Shown piece by piece: positions 10,162 to 16,798 of a stretch of 19,521 nt of DNA; the stretch's first letter is position 1; each line of letters starts with the position of its first letter. This DNA comes from Bacteroidota bacterium (GTDB lineage Bacteria > Bacteroidota > Bacteroidia > Sphingobacteriales > Sphingobacteriaceae), in contig JABDEQ010000037.1 of the NCBI GenBank assembly GCA_013286985.1, positions 1 to 19,521 on the forward strand, in the 5' to 3' direction. The notes beneath the pieces were generated by a model. The model searched no databases, had not been told where the DNA came from, and saw only the letters and a program-made list of their open reading frames with translations. A program made the position numbers and the translations under genes.

Positions 10162-12570
10162 TTACTCCGTTTTTATGCTTTTTACCGGGTTCATCAGCGC
10201 TGCCTTAACACTTAAATAAGAAACTGTTGCCATAGCAATTATAGCAACTGCTATAAAAGGAATTACAAAAAGTGTCCAGCTGATGTTTATCCTGAAAGCA
10301 TAGGTTTGGAGCCATTGATGAATAGCATACCATCCCAGTGGCGCTGATATTACAAAAGAAATTAAAACCAGCTGCGCAAAATCTTTATATAATAATTGCA
10401 AAATGCTGTTTACCGAAGCTCCCAATACTTTGCGGATGCCTATTTCTTTAGTACGCTGAACAATGGTAAACGATACTAATCCAAACAGGCCCAAACAAGC
10501 TACAAAAATGCCAATACCTGTAAACGTTGCAAATACCTGTCCGAATTGCTTATCGGCGTGATATTGTTCATTAAAGTGCTGATCAAGGAAAAAATAATTG
10601 AACTCATCGCCGGGGAAAAAGGCATTCCAGTTTTTTTTCAGCGCGGCTATGGTTTGCGGCAAATTGGTGGTGTTTATTTTTACCGATACCTGGCCCCTTA
10701 CATCGGGTATGCAGCGGAAAATAACAGCGTCAAAGGCATCATGTAATGATTGCTGGTGATAATTATCAACTACACCTATTATGGTATAAATCTGGCCCCA
10801 AAAGTCTATTTGTTTTCCAATAGCCTGTTCTGGTTTTTCAAAACCCATTTCCTGGGTGGCTTTTACGTTAAAAACTACAGCGTGAGGATCAGTAGTAAAT
10901 TCTTTTGAAAATAATCTGCCGGTTATTAATTTGGCATTGTAAGCTTTCAAATAATCATAGTCGCCGCCAATAATACGGTATTGTTTGCCTTGCGATTGAT
11001 CGGTACCTGTTAGTTTAATGCCCCCGGCATTCCACTGCACCGGATCGCCGGGTATTGATGTTGAAACGGTTACACTTTTAACGGATGGATCACGCAGACT
11101 TTCATTTTTAAAAGCGCTCATACTGCGGTAAAAAGAATCAACATGCGCCAGTGGTTGTTTTATCACCAGCGTTTGATCAATATTGATACCCAGCTTTTGG
11201 TTTTGCATATAACTAACCTGCCGGTAAACGGTTAACGAAAATATAAGCAAAAAGATGGATGCTGCAAATTGAAAAACCACCATCACCTTACGCATTACTA
11301 TGCCTTTTGGCGAAGCCGACAGTTTTCCTTTAATCACCTCTACCGGTTTAAAATTCGATAATACAACAGCCGGATAAAAGCCCGAAAAGAATGAACCCAG
11401 TAAAAACAATACAATTACAGCTATCCAGAAAATTGGTTTAAACAATAGCGTTAAAGTGATGTATTGCCCCGATATAACCGAAAAAATGGGTAGGAAAAGA
11501 ATGATTAATATAATAGAAAGCAGTATGGCCATCCCATTCAACAACATGGCTTCGAACATAAACTGGCTTAGGAGCTGGCTTTTTGCTGAGCCAAGCGTTT
11601 TACGGACACCCACTTCTTTGGCCCGGGTTATACCCTTAGCTGTAGCCAGGTTTATATAATTTATCCAGGCTATAATAATAACAAATATGGCTATGGCGGC
11701 TAATAAATAAACTGATTTTCCATCGCCATTTGGTTCGGCCTCGAGCATTAAGTGCGAGTACAGGTGGATGCTTTGTAATGGCTGCAGATGATATTTTGCG
11801 CTTGCCCCCGACCAATTTATTTTGCGATAAGTTTTATCAACAAAAGGCACAAATTTAGCTTCTAATGCTTTTGGATCAACGCCGGGCTTAAGCAGCAGGT
11901 AGGTTAAACAACCATCATTAAGCCAGGTAACATCCAGGTCACTTTTCGGGCCAACAAACTTCATTAAAGTGCTGTATGATATCAGCATGTCTGTTTTAAA
12001 GTGCGTATTTGCCGGAAAATCCTTCATCACCCCGGTAACTTTTAATGAATTAACATCCCATATAAAAGTTTTGCCTACAGCATCAGTAGTACCAAAAAGT
12101 TTTTTTGCCACTGATTCAGTTACCACAGCCGAATTAACTTCCTGTAAAGCAGTTTTAGGATCACCACTGATTAACGGATAACTGAAAATATTAAAAAATG
12201 ATTTGCCGGCGAAATAGGTTTTATCAAGCGTCAGTCTTTGATCTTTATATACCGCCAATAATGAACCATTGCCCACTACCTTTACAAAATCTTCAACTTC
12301 AGGGAAGTTATTTTTGAACGCATTCCCGGCCCCAAAAGCCCCGCCGGCCCATTGTGTACTTAATTTACCTCTATCATACCTATCCTGGCTAACACGGTAC
12401 ACCCTATCTTTCTTTGCATGAAAATTATCAAAGCTCAATTCAAACGATACATACTGTATAATTAACAGCCCGGCTGCCATACCAATGGCTAGGCCCGTAA
12501 TGTTAATGAAGGAGAAAGCCTTATTTTTTGAAAGGTTTCTGAATGCGATGAGTAGGTAATTTTTGATCAT
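10162..12570 (-). CDS. FtsX/MacB-like ABC transporter permease
   Basis: 802 residues with the duplicated layout of Bacteroidota FtsX-type permeases. First half: TM helix about 20-42 in the motif FINITGLAIGMAAGLLII, a MacB-like periplasmic core (about 45-280), then TM helices near 286-306, 342-364 and 379-400. The cytoplasmic-coupling motif AKEVGVRKTLGS (317-328) lies between the first two of these. Second half: TM near 430-449, a second periplasmic domain, and three helices in the last ~120 residues with TKEIGIRKVLGAS. No ATP-binding partner is encoded in the window, so it must use one from elsewhere. Related permeases export peptides, antibiotics or lipoproteins; the substrate here is unknown. 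It is divergent from the BlaI/BlaR-type operon and shares a 304-bp region containing three operators. Confidence 0.93.
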   Translation of the reverse strand: MIKNYLLIAFRNLSKNKAFSFINITGLAIGMAAGLLIIQYVSFELSFDNFHAKKDRVYRVSQDRYDRGKLSTQWAGGAFGAGNAFKNNFPEVEDFVKVVGNGSLLAVYKDQRLTLDKTYFAGKSFFNIFSYPLISGDPKTALQEVNSAVVTESVAKKLFGTTDAVGKTFIWDVNSLKVTGVMKDFPANTHFKTDMLISYSTLMKFVGPKSDLDVTWLNDGCLTYLLLKPGVDPKALEAKFVPFVDKTYRKINWSGASAKYHLQPLQSIHLYSHLMLEAEPNGDGKSVYLLAAIAIFVIIIAWINYINLATAKGITRAKEVGVRKTLGSAKSQLLSQFMFEAMLLNGMAILLSIILIILFLPIFSVISGQYITLTLLFKPIFWIAVIVLFLLGSFFSGFYPAVVLSNFKPVEVIKGKLSASPKGIVMRKVMVVFQFAASIFLLIFSLTVYRQVSYMQNQKLGINIDQTLVIKQPLAHVDSFYRSMSAFKNESLRDPSVKSVTVSTSIPGDPVQWNAGGIKLTGTDQSQGKQYRIIGGDYDYLKAYNAKLITGRLFSKEFTTDPHAVVFNVKATQEMGFEKPEQAIGKQIDFWGQIYTIIGVVDNYHQQSLHDAFDAVIFRCIPDVRGQVSVKINTTNLPQTIAALKKNWNAFFPGDEFNYFFLDQHFNEQYHADKQFGQVFATFTGIGIFVACLGLFGLVSFTIVQRTKEIGIRKVLGASVNSILQLLYKDFAQLVLISFVISAPLGWYAIHQWLQTYAFRINISWTLFVIPFIAVAIIAMATVSYLSVKAALMNPVKSIKTE

Positions 12571-12874
12571 AACATTGGCTATTTGAACTTGCCCCTGCTA
12601 ATATTATGCCGTTTTAATAAACAGTTGACTATCAATATTTTAAATAAAAATTGATTTTTCATTTTCGTTCGGATATATTATAGTTATTGTCCGCATCCGT
12701 ACAGTTATATTACTTGTTAATTTTCTTAAAAATCACGCCTTCGTTTCCTATAATATTTTTTCTTATTGAAAATCAAATACTTATGATTTAAATACTAATT
12801 AATTAGTAGAAATACTAATCAATTAGTTGTATTACTAATAAATTAGTATCAACTTTATAAAAAATTACAACCGT
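12571..12874. other. 304-bp divergent intergenic region, FtsX permease / BlaI operon
   Basis: The right quarter holds three operators (12793-12848). The left part (12571-12790) is AT-rich with no ORF; I could not place a convincing promoter for either direction. Confidence 0.6.
12793..12848. promoter_or_regulatory. Three tandem BlaI-type operators at 20-bp spacing
   Basis: The sites are TACTAATTAATTAGTA (12793-12808, perfect palindrome), TACTAATCAATTAGTT (12813-12828) and TACTAATAAATTAGTA (12833-12848). Shared core: ACTAATNAATTAGT. The starts are exactly 20 bp apart, close to two helical turns, so dimers would line up on nearly the same face. The last site ends 26 bp before the BlaI-type start codon. 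BlaI/MecI repressors bind short TAC...GTA palindromes and often autoregulate, which fits. Confidence 0.8.
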
Positions 12875-13237
12875 ATGCAAAAGCTGGCCAAAAGAGAAGA
12901 ACAAATAATGCAGGTGATGTGGCAACTGGGGTACGCATTTATAAAAGAAATTATAAACGAAATGCCCGACCCCAAGCCCCATTATAATACCATTGCTACT
13001 ATGGTAAAAATATTGGAAGACAAACGTTTTTTAGAACATGAATCAATTGGTAACGTTTTCCGTTATTATCCAGTCATATCAAAAGAGCAGTATCAAAACC
13101 ATGCTATGACAGATATTGTCAGTCAGTATTTTGATAACTCCTACCCTAACATGCTGATGTTTTTCGCCAAAGAGCAAAAAATATCCGAAGAAGAATTAAC
13201 TGAAATAGTAAACCTCATTAAATCGCAAAAGAAATGA
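12875..13237 (+). CDS. BlaI/MecI/CopY-family transcriptional repressor
   Basis: 120 residues, the standard length. Residues about 1-75 form the winged-helix domain: LAKREEQIMQVMWQLGYAFIKEIINEMPD, then the recognition helix in HYNTIATMVKILEDKRFLEHESIGNVFRYYPVIS. Residues about 80-120 form the dimerisation helices (QNHAMTDIVSQYFDNSYPNMLMFFAKEQKISEEELTEIVNLI). In characterised systems the partner BlaR1 protease triggers repressor cleavage between these domains. The start is supported by full length and by the three palindromes immediately upstream. The stop overlaps the start of the BlaR1-type gene as ATGA, so they are translationally coupled. Confidence 0.93.
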   Translation: MQKLAKREEQIMQVMWQLGYAFIKEIINEMPDPKPHYNTIATMVKILEDKRFLEHESIGNVFRYYPVISKEQYQNHAMTDIVSQYFDNSYPNMLMFFAKEQKISEEELTEIVNLIKSQKK

Positions 13238-15657
13238 TACCTTACCTGTTACACGTAGCTTTATTGATATCAGTTTGCCTTTTGTTTTATAAGCTGTTAT
13301 TGCAAAAAGAAACCTTTTACCGGCTTAACCGTGTTGTTTTAGTTTTTTGTTTGGCTTTAGCATTTGTATTACCGCTTATACCTATACCCCAACAATGGGC
13401 GCTAAGGGAAGTTTCTAAAGCACCCGAGGTAAGTACTCAGCCGCAAAAAGCTTATCAGCCTGTTATTATTACACCGCAGAATGATGTGTCAAACATGCCC
13501 GTGGCAAAGCCTGCTGCTAGTCCCACTTCAGCCATAAAACAAACTTCGGCAATAACCAATCAAAGCGAGCCCTTAATGCACAGTGCTATTAAATGGCTGT
13601 TTTATTTATACTGGATTGGGGTTGCCGCCTTTGGATTAAACTTTTTGCTGCAAATTATAGTATTGCTATACCAGGCCTATACCAAGCCGGCAATAAAGGA
13701 TGGCAAGTTCCGAATTGTTGAGCTTTACGGCGATAAGGCCCCCTGTTCATTTGGCAACAACATTTTCATTAATCCCGAAAAGTATGACTGGGATACTTAT
13801 AGCCAGATTTTACTACACGAAAAAATCCATATTCAACAGGGCCATAGTTTTGATATTTTAATAGCTGAGCTGGTTTTAGTGGTGCAATGGTTTAACCCAT
13901 TTGCATGGATTTATCGTACCGAAGTTGAAAATAATCTGGAGTTTTTAACCGACGATGCCGTACTGGAACACAAAGAAATTGAAAGGGAAAGTTATCAGAT
14001 GAGCCTTTTAAAGGTATCGGCACCACACCTTTCGCTTGGAATTACAACCAATTACAACCAATCATTATTAAAGAAAAGAATTGTTATGATGAATGCTAAA
14101 AAATCAAACATCCATATTATGTGGAAATACTTTTTCCTGGTGCCCTTGCTGGGAGTATTGGCATGCGCATTAAATGACCCGGCTGCTTATAGCATGCCCG
14201 TTAACACATCGGCTAAAAACCATTTACAAACTACAAAAGATACCGATAACCGGCCCGATGACAGAACCCAGGGAGCATGGTTTGCAACAATTAAAAATGA
14301 TAAAGTTCATATTGAATTTAAAAGCAATGACGATGATCACAACTGGTCAAACAGTTCGACATTCAATCTTAGTGACTTTCCGGCCCTGCCAAAAGATCAA
14401 AAAGGTGAATTTACCCTAAAACGCGAAGCCGGTGTTATTGTGTTTAACGGCAAGTTTGAGGGAAATGAAGGCTACGGCCATTATAAATTCACGGCCGATA
14501 AAAGTTTTAACGCTTTTTTAACCAGCCAGGGTATTACTGAAATTGAAGATGGCGACTCATTTGCTTTCTTTAGCTTGAATATTAAAAAGGACTATGTATT
14601 GATGTTGCAAAAAAATGGATTCAAGGATATCTCTAAGGGCAATTTGATTGCAATGTCGGCCCTTAAAGTTGATGAACCGTACATAGCCATGTGGAAAGCA
14701 AACGGATTTAATGATCTTAGTCCGAATGAGCTGGTATCAGGCAAGGCATTGGGTATAACCAGCGAGTACGTAAACGAAATACGAAAGGCCGGTTATAAAG
14801 ACATCAGTTTTAATCAGTTGGTGAGTTTCAAGGCACAAAATATTACCGGAGCCTATATTAATGGTCTGCGCAAAAACAAAATTAAAAATGGCTCAGGCGC
14901 AGGCGAAGATAGTTTACCATCAGCCAATGAAATATCCAGCTATAAAGCCATGAACATTGATTCGGCGTATGTGCGGTCATTAGCCGCCGCCGGGTATAGA
15001 AATATATCTTATAACCAACTCACTACCCTAAAAGCCCTGGGTATTACCGCTGCTTATACAAAAAGCTTCAAAGAAGTAGGGTATACTACTTTAACGCTTA
15101 ACAATCTTATCACCTTAAAATCTTTAGGTATAACACCTGCTTATATTAAAGGCTTTGAAGCTTTGGGATACAAAAACCTTACCGTAAATAATGTCACTAC
15201 CTTAAAATCATTAGGTATAACTGAAGATTATATTAAGGGTTTTGAGGCGATGGGGTATAAAAATTTATCAGTAAATAATTTGTCCACCTTAAAATCATTA
15301 GATATCAATGAAGAGTATATTAAAAGCTTTGAAGCGTTAGGATATAAGAATCTTTCTATAAACAATTTAAGCTCTTTAAAGGCGCTGGGCATCAATGAGG
15401 AATATGTTAAAAGCTTTGAAGCCATCGGTTATAAAAACATCCCGGTTAATTCATTAAGCTCATTAAAAGCAATGGATATTACTCCTGATTTTGTAAAAGG
15501 ATTTAAAGACATTGGGTTTACCGATATTTCTATTAATCAGCTGTCATCATTAAAAGCTACAGGCGTAACCCCCGCTTACATTACCGAAATGAGAGGTAAA
15601 GGCTTTAACTCAAATGATGTAGAAAAGTATGTGCGTTTAAAAACAGCCTTTAATTAA
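13234..15657 (+). CDS. BlaR1-type M56 membrane metalloprotease with a repeat-containing ectodomain
   Basis: 807 residues. TM helices lie near residues 3-21, 34-51, 121-146 and 299-313, the four-helix layout of BlaR1. The gluzincin site is H195-E-K-I-H199 with E236 (EFLTDD) as the likely third ligand, so the protease looks intact. The usual C-terminal penicillin-binding sensor is missing. Residues about 335-446 form a beta-rich module (GAWFATIKNDKVHIEFK ... FTLKREAGVIVFNGKFEG). Residues 447-807 are twelve copies of a 29-residue repeat, consensus xLGITxxYIKxFxxxGYKN followed by LSxNxLxxLK. The fourth copy carries a 9-residue insertion and the last copy is a divergent cap. The ectodomain should face the periplasm. 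The ligand is unknown. The next gene encodes the same module and repeats without the membrane part. Confidence 0.9.
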   Translation: MIPYLLHVALLISVCLLFYKLLLQKETFYRLNRVVLVFCLALAFVLPLIPIPQQWALREVSKAPEVSTQPQKAYQPVIITPQNDVSNMPVAKPAASPTSAIKQTSAITNQSEPLMHSAIKWLFYLYWIGVAAFGLNFLLQIIVLLYQAYTKPAIKDGKFRIVELYGDKAPCSFGNNIFINPEKYDWDTYSQILLHEKIHIQQGHSFDILIAELVLVVQWFNPFAWIYRTEVENNLEFLTDDAVLEHKEIERESYQMSLLKVSAPHLSLGITTNYNQSLLKKRIVMMNAKKSNIHIMWKYFFLVPLLGVLACALNDPAAYSMPVNTSAKNHLQTTKDTDNRPDDRTQGAWFATIKNDKVHIEFKSNDDDHNWSNSSTFNLSDFPALPKDQKGEFTLKREAGVIVFNGKFEGNEGYGHYKFTADKSFNAFLTSQGITEIEDGDSFAFFSLNIKKDYVLMLQKNGFKDISKGNLIAMSALKVDEPYIAMWKANGFNDLSPNELVSGKALGITSEYVNEIRKAGYKDISFNQLVSFKAQNITGAYINGLRKNKIKNGSGAGEDSLPSANEISSYKAMNIDSAYVRSLAAAGYRNISYNQLTTLKALGITAAYTKSFKEVGYTTLTLNNLITLKSLGITPAYIKGFEALGYKNLTVNNVTTLKSLGITEDYIKGFEAMGYKNLSVNNLSTLKSLDINEEYIKSFEALGYKNLSINNLSSLKALGINEEYVKSFEAIGYKNIPVNSLSSLKAMDITPDFVKGFKDIGFTDISINQLSSLKATGVTPAYITEMRGKGFNSNDVEKYVRLKTAFN
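14572..15654 (+). repeat. Twelve tandem 87-bp (29-residue) coding repeats in the BlaR1-type gene
   Basis: Units start at codons 447, 476, 505, 534 (extended by 27 bp), 572, 601, 630, 659, 688, 717, 746 and 775. Neighbouring units 7 and 8 differ at about 23 of 87 bases; ten codons change synonymously and six residues change. The repeats are therefore old and held by selection on the protein, not a recent DNA expansion. Confidence 0.88.
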
Positions 15658-15676
15658 TGATCTAATCTTAATCATC

Positions 15677-16753
15677 ATGAAAAAAATCATTATAATAAAC
15701 TTGTTGGCATCGTTTTTATTGTTTGCTATGGCTGGCAGTCAAACATTTGCTCAACAGCCTCACCCAAAACCAAAGCCTACCCACAATAACGACTGGAATT
15801 TTGATAACAACGGTCATCTGCCCGGTACATGGAACGCTGTTATAAAAGATGGTGTTGTAAATATTGAATTCTTCGGCGAGCATTGGAGCGATGGCAGGAA
15901 TTTCACCATAGCGGAACTTGGTGTGCTGCCTGCAGACAAAATTGGAGACTTTAGCCTAAACCGGGAATCTGGCAAATTGAGTTTCAAAGGCGTATTTCAG
16001 GATCAATGGGGCCACGGCACTTATCAGTTTGATGAAAATCCTGGCTTTAAAGCATACCTGGCACAAAAGGGCTATACCGGTTTAGACAAAGAATTAATGC
16101 TCAATGTCTTCTTTACCGATATCAATAAAAGTTATTTTGACTACTTAAAGTCAAATGGCTACGTGTCCATTTCAAACAGCCAATTTAAAGATCTTGCCGA
16201 ACAGGACATCAACCGTAAAGCGTTGGATGATTATTTTAACCTGTTTAAAACGGAAGGCTATGGCCATCAATCCATCGATAAAATTGTTGAGTTAAGGGAA
16301 CATGGTGTAGGCGCCCGTTTTATAAACAGCTTTCACCAGGCGGGGTATAAAGACATACCGCTTGACAGGGCGCTGGAATTACGTGACCATGGCGTAAGCG
16401 TTGAGTATATAACCAGTATTCAAAAAATGGGTTACGAAAAAGTATCGCTGGAAAGAGCACAGGAACTACGTGATCATGGTGTAACCACCGAATTTATAAG
16501 CGATATGCAAAATATCGGGTATAAAGACATCAGCCTGGAAAAAGCGCAGGAGCTACGTGATCATGGCGTTAATCCGGAGTTTATAAAAAGTATTGCGGCT
16601 TTAGGTTTTAAAGATATTACGCTTGATCAGGCCCAGGAATTGAGAGATCATGGAGTAAATGCCGCTTTCATAAAAAAAGCGCAGGGCAAGGGCATGAATC
16701 TTCATACACTTGATGATTATATCAGATTAAGAGATACTGGTTTCAACGATTAA
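15677..16753 (+). CDS. Secreted protein homologous to the BlaR1-type ectodomain
   Basis: 358 residues. Residues 1-25 are a Sec signal peptide (MKKIIIINLLASFLLFAMAG, cut expected after TFA before QQPHPKPKP). Residues about 48-145 match the beta-rich module of the upstream protease: GTWNAVIKDGVVNIEFF, then FSLNRESGKLSFKGVF, then WGHGTYQF. Residues 146-358 are seven 29-residue repeats: two divergent ones (the second with a 4-residue insertion), four regular copies sharing the joint ELRDHGV, and a cap with GKGMNLHTLDDYIRL that matches the last repeat of the protease. The repeat class is the same, though the joint is ELRDHGV here and TLKSLGI there. It starts 19 bp after the protease gene and shares its operon. 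Likely periplasmic or exported. A role as ligand, competitor or scaffold of the sensor is inference. Confidence 0.85.
   Translation: MKKIIIINLLASFLLFAMAGSQTFAQQPHPKPKPTHNNDWNFDNNGHLPGTWNAVIKDGVVNIEFFGEHWSDGRNFTIAELGVLPADKIGDFSLNRESGKLSFKGVFQDQWGHGTYQFDENPGFKAYLAQKGYTGLDKELMLNVFFTDINKSYFDYLKSNGYVSISNSQFKDLAEQDINRKALDDYFNLFKTEGYGHQSIDKIVELREHGVGARFINSFHQAGYKDIPLDRALELRDHGVSVEYITSIQKMGYEKVSLERAQELRDHGVTTEFISDMQNIGYKDISLEKAQELRDHGVNPEFIKSIAALGFKDITLDQAQELRDHGVNAAFIKKAQGKGMNLHTLDDYIRLRDTGFND
16112..16750 (+). repeat. Seven tandem 29-residue coding repeats in the secreted paralogue
   Basis: Units begin at codons 146, 175, 208, 237, 266, 295 and 324. Units three to seven begin with (E/D)HGV preceded by ELR, and the corresponding DNA (gagctacgtgatcatgg-like) is well conserved between copies. 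Confidence 0.82.
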
Positions 16754-16763
16754 AAGACTTTCA

Positions 16764-16798
16764 AGCATAAGCAAAACCATTAAGGTTTTGCTTATGCT
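16764..16798. terminator. Bidirectional terminator with a perfect 15-bp stem
   Basis: AGCATAAGCAAAACC (16764-16778) pairs with 16784-16798 around ATTAA, and CTTTTTTC follows on the plus strand. It ends the BlaI/BlaR-type operon. The stop codon of the minus-strand gene (16792-16794) is inside the right arm. Confidence 0.88.

What the first reader, a model, noticed from the sequence alone, without database searches (positions are those of the whole stretch)
12875..16753. BlaI/BlaR1-like operon whose sensor domain is replaced by a beta module plus 29-residue repeats, with a free secreted paralogue of that sensor
The repressor and the M56 protease (HEKIH at 195-199, four TM helices) are standard. 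The penicillin-binding sensor is absent. In its place is a beta module and twelve repeats, and the third gene encodes the same module, same repeat class and a matching terminal cap as an exported protein. A signalling protease and a soluble copy of its own ectodomain in one operon suggests a ligand, decoy or co-receptor arrangement and a signal other than beta-lactams. Presence of the domains is seen; the mechanism is inferred.
Basis: partly seen in the sequence, partly recalled or inferred. Interest (0 to 1): 0.78.

Follow-up and report, generated by a model that had tools for sequence, protein, structure and literature searches.

The report
BlaR1-type operon with secreted sensor twin
A soil bacterium carries a version of the penicillin-sensing switch in which the penicillin sensor is replaced by a repeat-built module, and the same operon also makes a secreted free relative of that module, which points to an undescribed way of sensing and answering something outside the cell.

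Summary
The operon encodes BlaI, an M56 protease without a recognisable penicillin-binding domain, and an exported protein. The protease ectodomain and the exported protein share a six-strand beta module, 29-residue two-helix repeats (12 and 7 units) and a cap (BLASTP E 3e-41; same predicted topology). Tandem palindromes (ACTAATnnATTAGT, 20-bp register) precede blaI in 30 of 32 related loci (0 of 6400 shuffles). In 12 of 14 genomes holding the pair it lies only at this promoter; two genomes lacking blaI-M56 lack it.

Of 35 related loci, 24 have blaI-M56 without a secreted gene, 8 with one or two, 2 have only secreted genes, 1 is cut off. Five blaI-M56-secreted triplets occur in another order of the phylum. 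The exported protein is a separate clade; a second free copy in three operons derives from the protease gene.

Best reading: a BlaR1-type switch for an unknown, probably non-beta-lactam envelope signal, whose secreted product is an effector or buffer for the same ligand, not an obligate co-receptor. The ligand is unknown. I found no description in the papers searched. New variant of a known kind.

The parts
12794..12847 (.). three palindromes ACTAATnnATTAGT at 20-bp spacing (12794, 12814, 12834), proposed BlaI operators
   Evidence: exact matches; 20-bp register in 30 of 32 related blaI loci, 0 of 6400 shuffles
12875..13237 (+). blaI: penicillinase-repressor family, 120 aa
   Evidence: PF03965 E 7e-32; aligns with MecI of known structure E 8e-10
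13157..13165 (+). BlaI residues M95-F96-F97, predicted cleavage site (P1' F97)
   Evidence: F97 aligns with the Phe of MecI LNF; BlaI cleavage N101/F102 in PMC9834060 (passages); prediction only
13234..15657 (+). M56 membrane metalloprotease with repeat ectodomain, 807 aa
   Evidence: PF05569 E 3.8e-13
13816..13830 (+). HEKIH zinc motif, residues 195-199
   Evidence: H195, E196, K197, H199 invariant in 51 sequences
14269..14496 (+). beta module of the M56 ectodomain (residues 346-421)
   Evidence: six strands in the model; homologous to SEC
14548..15654 (+). 12 repeats of 29 residues plus cap (residues 439-807)
15677..16753 (+). SEC: exported beta-module and repeat protein, 358 aa
   Evidence: 395 homologues at E <= 0.001
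15827..16036 (+). beta module of SEC (residues 51-120)
   Evidence: six strands, block pLDDT 93 or more for residues 51-120
16088..16750 (+). 7 repeats of 29 residues plus cap of SEC (residues 138-358)
16764..16798 (+). terminator-like hairpin after SEC
   Evidence: consensus scan, 15 pairs then T run; 8 such sites found in the region against 5.2 expected, so weak
10162..12570 (-). divergent MacB/FtsX-type permease; possible second target of the operators
   Evidence: PF12704, PF02687; divergent from blaI in 6 of 8 loci with blaI, M56 and SEC; link is inference

Best explanation
This is a BlaR1-type regulated-proteolysis switch with a non-penicillin sensor. BlaI represses the operon from tandem palindromes. 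The outer part of the M56 protein, a beta module plus a two-helix solenoid, binds an envelope ligand of unknown nature. Binding activates the metalloprotease, which cuts BlaI (predicted F96/F97) and lifts repression. The operon then makes more receptor and the exported soluble relative, SEC. SEC most likely binds the same kind of ligand and is the output of the circuit: an effector or buffer that captures the ligand and, by taking it from the receptor, also shuts the signal off. A divergent ABC-type permease may be co-regulated. Shown: gene order, homology, predicted folds, conserved operator-like sites, separate occurrence of either half. Inferred: repression at these sites, ligand binding, cleavage, shared ligand, feedback.
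For: M56 and BlaI family membership with the catalytic residues kept. Operator-like tandem in 30 of 32 blaI loci; genome-wide in 14 of 16 genomes, only at this promoter in 12 of those 14, absent from the 2 genomes without blaI-M56, so the operon's own products are most of the output. Receptor and SEC share fold and all six invariant residues of the SEC beta module. SEC-type proteins exist without blaI-M56 in 2 loci, and blaI-M56 without SEC in 24. Triplets recur in another order (L127, L128, L141-L143). Low dN/dS on every part.
Against: No ligand, expression or binding data. Identity of receptor and SEC is only 24% and they form separate clades, so the ligands may differ. In the distant triplets the receptor lacks the beta module. 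In G120 a second exact tandem lies near another permease gene and G024 has a weak extra site, so the regulon is not strictly the operon. In 24 loci there is no secreted product, so the output there must be something else.
Confidence: 0.5

Rival explanations
1. SEC is an obligate ligand or co-receptor of the M56 ectodomain: the two solenoids pair, and SEC presence or occupancy is the signal.
For: Same operon and same fold; solenoids often bind proteins (general knowledge).
Against: 24 of 35 loci have blaI-M56 without a secreted gene, and their genomes hold no other relative at E <= 0.001; 2 of 35 have secreted genes without blaI-M56.
Confidence: 0.13
2. SEC is an effector with its own, different target; the switch merely sets its dose, and the homology reflects reuse of a common exported scaffold.
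For: Separate clades, 24% identity, wide spread of the scaffold in free proteins.
Against: Repeated pairing of exactly this scaffold with M56 receptors that carry its relative, and recent release of middle copies from the receptor gene itself.
Confidence: 0.25
3. The switch still answers beta-lactams or cell-wall damage, through wall fragments or a partner, as a resistance-type system.
For: BlaI-M56 logic; in one relative (L055) a PF00144 serine hydrolase follows M56 after about 9 bp.
Against: No penicillin-binding domain found; no beta-lactamase among the Pfam-tested window proteins (only 5 window proteins were tested); only 1 of the 4 downstream neighbours tested was PF00144.
Confidence: 0.08
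4. The repeats are TALE-like and bind nucleic acid outside the membrane.
Confidence: 0.04

Closest known systems
BlaI-BlaR1 / MecI-MecR1 of staphylococci and Bacillus licheniformis
   Same: Repressor of the BlaI/MecI family next to an M56 gluzincin membrane protease with an extracytoplasmic C-terminal part; conserved Phe at the repressor's cleavage position; palindromic sites before the operon
   Different: No penicillin-binding sensor found, a beta module plus 29-residue repeats instead; no beta-lactamase or PBP2a gene in the operon; an exported homologue of the sensor is encoded; the candidate operator sequence is ACTAATnnATTAGT
Mycobacterium tuberculosis BlaI-BlaR1 homologue
   Same: M56 receptor without the penicillin-binding sensor (PMC9834060, passage)
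   Different: There the sensor is missing; here it is replaced by a large repeat ectodomain and paired with a secreted homologue
TALE-like repeat proteins (TALE, BurrH)
   Same: Tandem two-helix repeats forming a superhelix
   Different: 29-residue units (TALE units are about 33-35, recalled), exported, beta module in front; only weak sequence and structural matches
Soluble or periplasmic regulators of envelope sensors, such as CpxP (recalled, no call)
   Same: Exported product of the regulated operon that may damp its own sensor
   Different: CpxP is not homologous to its sensor's ectodomain (recalled); here the soluble protein is

Membership tests
BlaI/MecI repressor family (PF03965) | profile match over the cut-off | tested here: met
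   110.6 bits against 22.6; MecI structure match E 8.3e-10
BlaI/MecI repressor family (PF03965) | operator palindromes at its own promoter | tested here: met
   sequence only: 30 of 32 loci with 20-bp tandem; binding not tested
M56 (BlaR1) peptidase family (PF05569) | profile match and HExxH...ExxxD | tested here: met
   49.7 bits against 31; H195, E196, H199, E236, D240 invariant in 51 sequences
M56 (BlaR1) peptidase family (PF05569) | cleavage of the repressor | not testable with these tools
   only the conserved Phe at the expected place
BlaR1/MecR1 beta-lactam sensor | C-terminal penicillin-binding (transpeptidase-like) sensor domain | tested here: not met
   no such Pfam domain up to E 1; blaR1_generic 19.9 bits against 400
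BlaR1/MecR1 beta-lactam sensor | control of a beta-lactamase or PBP2a gene | tested here: not met
   the operon holds blaI, M56 and SEC only; the genome of the window is not held, so targets elsewhere could not be looked for in it
TALE-like DNA-binding repeats | repeat homology and fold | tested here: inconclusive
   weak matches only
TALE-like DNA-binding repeats | DNA binding with a repeat code | not testable with these tools
   no binding data; signal peptide (read by eye) and ectodomain position speak for an extracytoplasmic place

The most novel reading that the evidence does not exclude
An undescribed, widespread class of BlaR1-type receptors whose two-helix solenoid ectodomains recognise an extracellular polymer or peptide, with soluble solenoid relatives secreted under the receptor's own control as a ligand-buffering effector: a closed receptor / soluble-receptor feedback circuit in bacteria, with such a free partner gained more than once.
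Probability: 0.3. Interest if true: 0.78.

Novelty: new variant of a known kind. Interest (0 to 1): 0.58.

Why it matters
BlaR1-type switches are best known as beta-lactam sensors, while each of the 12 genomes scanned here has 4 to 10 M56 matches. This locus gives one kind of M56 protein a defined non-penicillin ectodomain, a soluble homologue usable as ligand bait, and an operator-like sequence usable for a reporter. That makes the question of what orphan M56 receptors sense directly testable in soil bacteria. The same repeat class, free or fused to M56, also turns up in proteins whose sources name Acidobacteriota, Thermoanaerobaculia, Vicinamibacteria and Candidatus Krumholzibacterium (among the 120 of 3555 hits listed).

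Tried and rejected
Recent duplication of the M56 ectodomain as the origin of SEC: rejected by the tree (quick method, SH-aLRT only), where SEC-type rows form a clade at 99 and M56 ectodomains another at 92 (under the 95 mark). It does fit the middle copies, which fall among the Mucilaginibacter M56 rows without starred support. In that tree three rows (L002 358 aa, L008 392 aa, L054 385 aa) were labelled 'mid' by my rule and are SEC by position and clade; the two window proteins were entered twice; P0118, labelled SEC, fell among the distant rows; P0114 and P0116 dropped out because the region was not covered.

A conserved His in the repeats as a mark of free copies: seen in the window and in L127/L128, but protease-fused repeats carry it too, so dropped.

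Literature: searches listed nothing that describes this operon or repeat class by title or shown abstract. Two repeat-screen papers (PMC5472282: term search and part 1 of 6 of the text; PMC11417379: term search) do not hold the terms M56, BlaR1 or Mucilaginibacter; the first screened units of 30-43 residues, so 29 lay outside it. Only an open-licence library was searched.

Survey limits: one search scored at most 7 candidates a genome and at most 4, so 26 of 251 and 55 of 395 are lower bounds. Of 395, 812 and 3555 hits each were listed. I aligned 64 of the 120 listed SEC hits and 50 of the 120 listed M56 hits with the window proteins. The shuffles keep base composition only, not dinucleotides.

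Full report
What is there. The window matches Mucilaginibacter (Sphingobacteriaceae) most closely: of the nine loci found with the secreted protein, eight bear that name and one is a Bacteroidetes bacterium. The nearest, L001, keeps the gene order with the annotated-type genes at 84.7-99.2% protein identity (antisense frames left out). The operon is blaI (12875-13237), an M56 protease (13234-15657, overlapping blaI by 4 bp) and an exported protein, called SEC here (15677-16753), followed by a terminator-like hairpin. A MacB/FtsX-type permease is transcribed away from blaI across 304 bp.

The protease. PF05569 is over its cut-off. H195, E196, K197, H199, E236 and D240 are invariant in 51 aligned sequences. 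PMC9834060 (passages read) gives H201EXXH and E242XXXD as the BlaR1 signature, places the active site on the cytosolic side and the sensor outside, and reports BlaI cleavage between N101 and F102. The window's BlaI aligns with MecI over residues 4-116, with F97 at the Phe of MecI's LNF. A pattern search caught 24 of the 32 related loci with blaI, and all of them have FF here (where L008 is listed again as L053); the other 8 have a different surrounding sequence and were not caught. No penicillin-binding domain was found.

The shared ectodomain. BLASTP aligns M56 347-807 with SEC 50-358 in overlapping pieces, best E 3e-41. AlphaFold of SEC with 65 sequences has pLDDT 90.9 and pTM 0.79: six strands (51-120), then helix pairs to 353. 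The M56 model is weaker overall (70.9, pTM 0.40), but from residue 341 on its ten-residue blocks lie between 70 and 89, except one at 45 in the insert, and it shows six strands (346-421) and helix pairs to 806. All six residues invariant in the SEC beta module (W70, R96, G99, G105, G112, G114) fall on invariant M56 residues at a constant offset of 301. So fold and key residues are shared, while identity is 24%.

Who else has it. I examined 35 loci of this family: the window, L001-L009, L054-L072, L132-L134 and L138-L140; L053 is L008 again. blaI-M56-SEC: 5 (window, L001, L002, L004, L054). blaI-M56-middle copy-SEC: 3 (L003, L006, L008). Secreted genes only: 2 (L005, L009). Cut by the contig end: 1 (L007). 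blaI-M56 without a secreted gene: 24. In those 24 genomes every candidate of the first look was scored and no relative of SEC outside the M56 gene was found. In the two genomes with secreted genes only, every candidate was scored too and nothing besides the pair was found, although M56 proteins of other kinds remain. In an order-level search around the distant genome G501, 14 of 114 genomes matched. From there and from the phylum search I have five triplets blaI-M56(repeats)-secreted(beta module + repeats): L127, L128, L141, L142, L143; and five blaI-M56(repeats) pairs with no secreted gene recognised beside them: L129, L144, L149, L150, L151. L145-L148 showed no blaI-M56 pair; three of these four reach a contig end. 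In these distant proteases only the repeats match and the beta module is not found, so the shared element there is the solenoid. L130 and L131 have blaI and an M56 protein with beta module and repeats; L130 is cut just after M56.

Origins. In a tree of the beta module and first repeats (76 rows, 155 columns, quick method), SEC-type rows form one clade (SH-aLRT 99) and the family's M56 ectodomains another (92), with L134 outside both. So SEC does not look like a fresh copy of its neighbour. The five middle copies fall among the Mucilaginibacter M56 rows, without starred support. Three of them (L003, L006, L008) begin with the sequence of the protease's last membrane helix (KYFFLLPL or KYFFLVPL), now in the place of a signal sequence, which supports derivation from the protease gene independently of the tree. 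Free relatives were therefore gained at least twice.

Regulation. ACTAATnnATTAGT occurs exactly at 12794, 12814 and 12834. Among the 32 loci with blaI, 32 have at least one site within two mismatches, 31 at least two, and 30 a pair in 20-bp register; of 6400 composition-keeping shuffles 387 had a site and 0 the register. Genome-wide with up to three mismatches, 14 of 16 genomes have the tandem, in each at this promoter. One further place each exists in G120 (exact) and G024 (three mismatches); the two genomes without blaI-M56 have none, and the pattern read backwards gives 0 in all 16. The G120 site lies upstream of an open frame that resembles the window's permease by eye (no profile was run on it). 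The exact 16-base form gave, in 13 genomes, one site away from the operon (G120 C30). The regulon thus seems nearly confined to the operon, so its products are the main output. The permease is divergent from blaI in 6 of 8 loci with blaI, M56 and SEC (L003 is cut, L006 differs). Together with the G120 site this makes it a candidate second target, but shared synteny within the genus could explain it.

Selection. Between the window and L001, dN/dS is 0.054 for blaI, 0.086 for the protease part, 0.056 for the ectodomain and 0.076 for SEC, against 0.017-0.036 for three neighbours; with L002 the values are 0.031, 0.091, 0.040 and 0.048, at high dS. All parts are constrained, though less than the neighbours in the nearest pair. 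For L005 against L009 dS is saturated; only intact frames and dN 0.28-0.29 can be stated.

How it most likely works. By family knowledge, an M56 antirepressor senses outside and cuts its repressor inside. Here the sensor is the beta-module/solenoid ectodomain. Each half occurs without the other, which argues against an obligate ligand or co-receptor. The near-absence of other tandem sites makes SEC a main product of induction, and the shared fold and invariant residues suggest the same class of ligand. I therefore favour SEC as an effector or buffer with negative feedback (0.5). The main rival is an effector with an unrelated target whose dose the switch controls (0.25). The weak TALE-like resemblance is kept only as a description of a superhelix.

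Novelty. Searches in an open-licence library, plus term searches in two repeat-screen papers, gave no description of these ectodomains or operons. Pfam and NCBIfam gave no convincing model for module or repeats; SAM_2 and UBA_3 only reach their cut-offs on single short stretches. The BlaI-M56 logic is known, so I rate it a new variant of a known kind.

Noticed in passing
L056, L057, L058, L060, L061, L062, L064, L065, L068, L069, downstream of M56: In 10 of the 24 blaI-M56 loci without a secreted gene, a co-directional gene of about 805-826 aa follows M56 after 69-275 bp. The two that were tested (L056, L064) are PF19313 (DUF5916) with CBM9_1; the others look alike at the N-terminus.
   Followed up: partly
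L055 4375-6018: A PF00144 (beta-lactamase family) serine hydrolase gene starts about 9 bp after the M56 gene in this one relative.
   Followed up: no
L003 3572-5179, L006 6391-7929, L008 6161-7837, L005 6594-7844, L009 6455-7828: The middle free copies carry a low-complexity linker rich in VNPVVNANV-type repeats between signal and beta module.
   Followed up: no
L053 14243-14276: A second exact tandem operator in genome G120, between the end of one FtsX-type permease gene and the start of another that resembles it.
   Followed up: partly
L110, L113, L117, L119 (about 235-250 aa open frames): Another protein type with a few of the same repeats behind what looks like one membrane helix, seen in several genomes of the phylum survey.
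   Followed up: no
L127-L129 and L130-L131, upstream of blaI: Other palindrome-like sequences stand there (ATGCTAG...CTAGCAT types and ACGAA...TTCGT types), suggesting changed operator specificity (read by eye).
   Followed up: no
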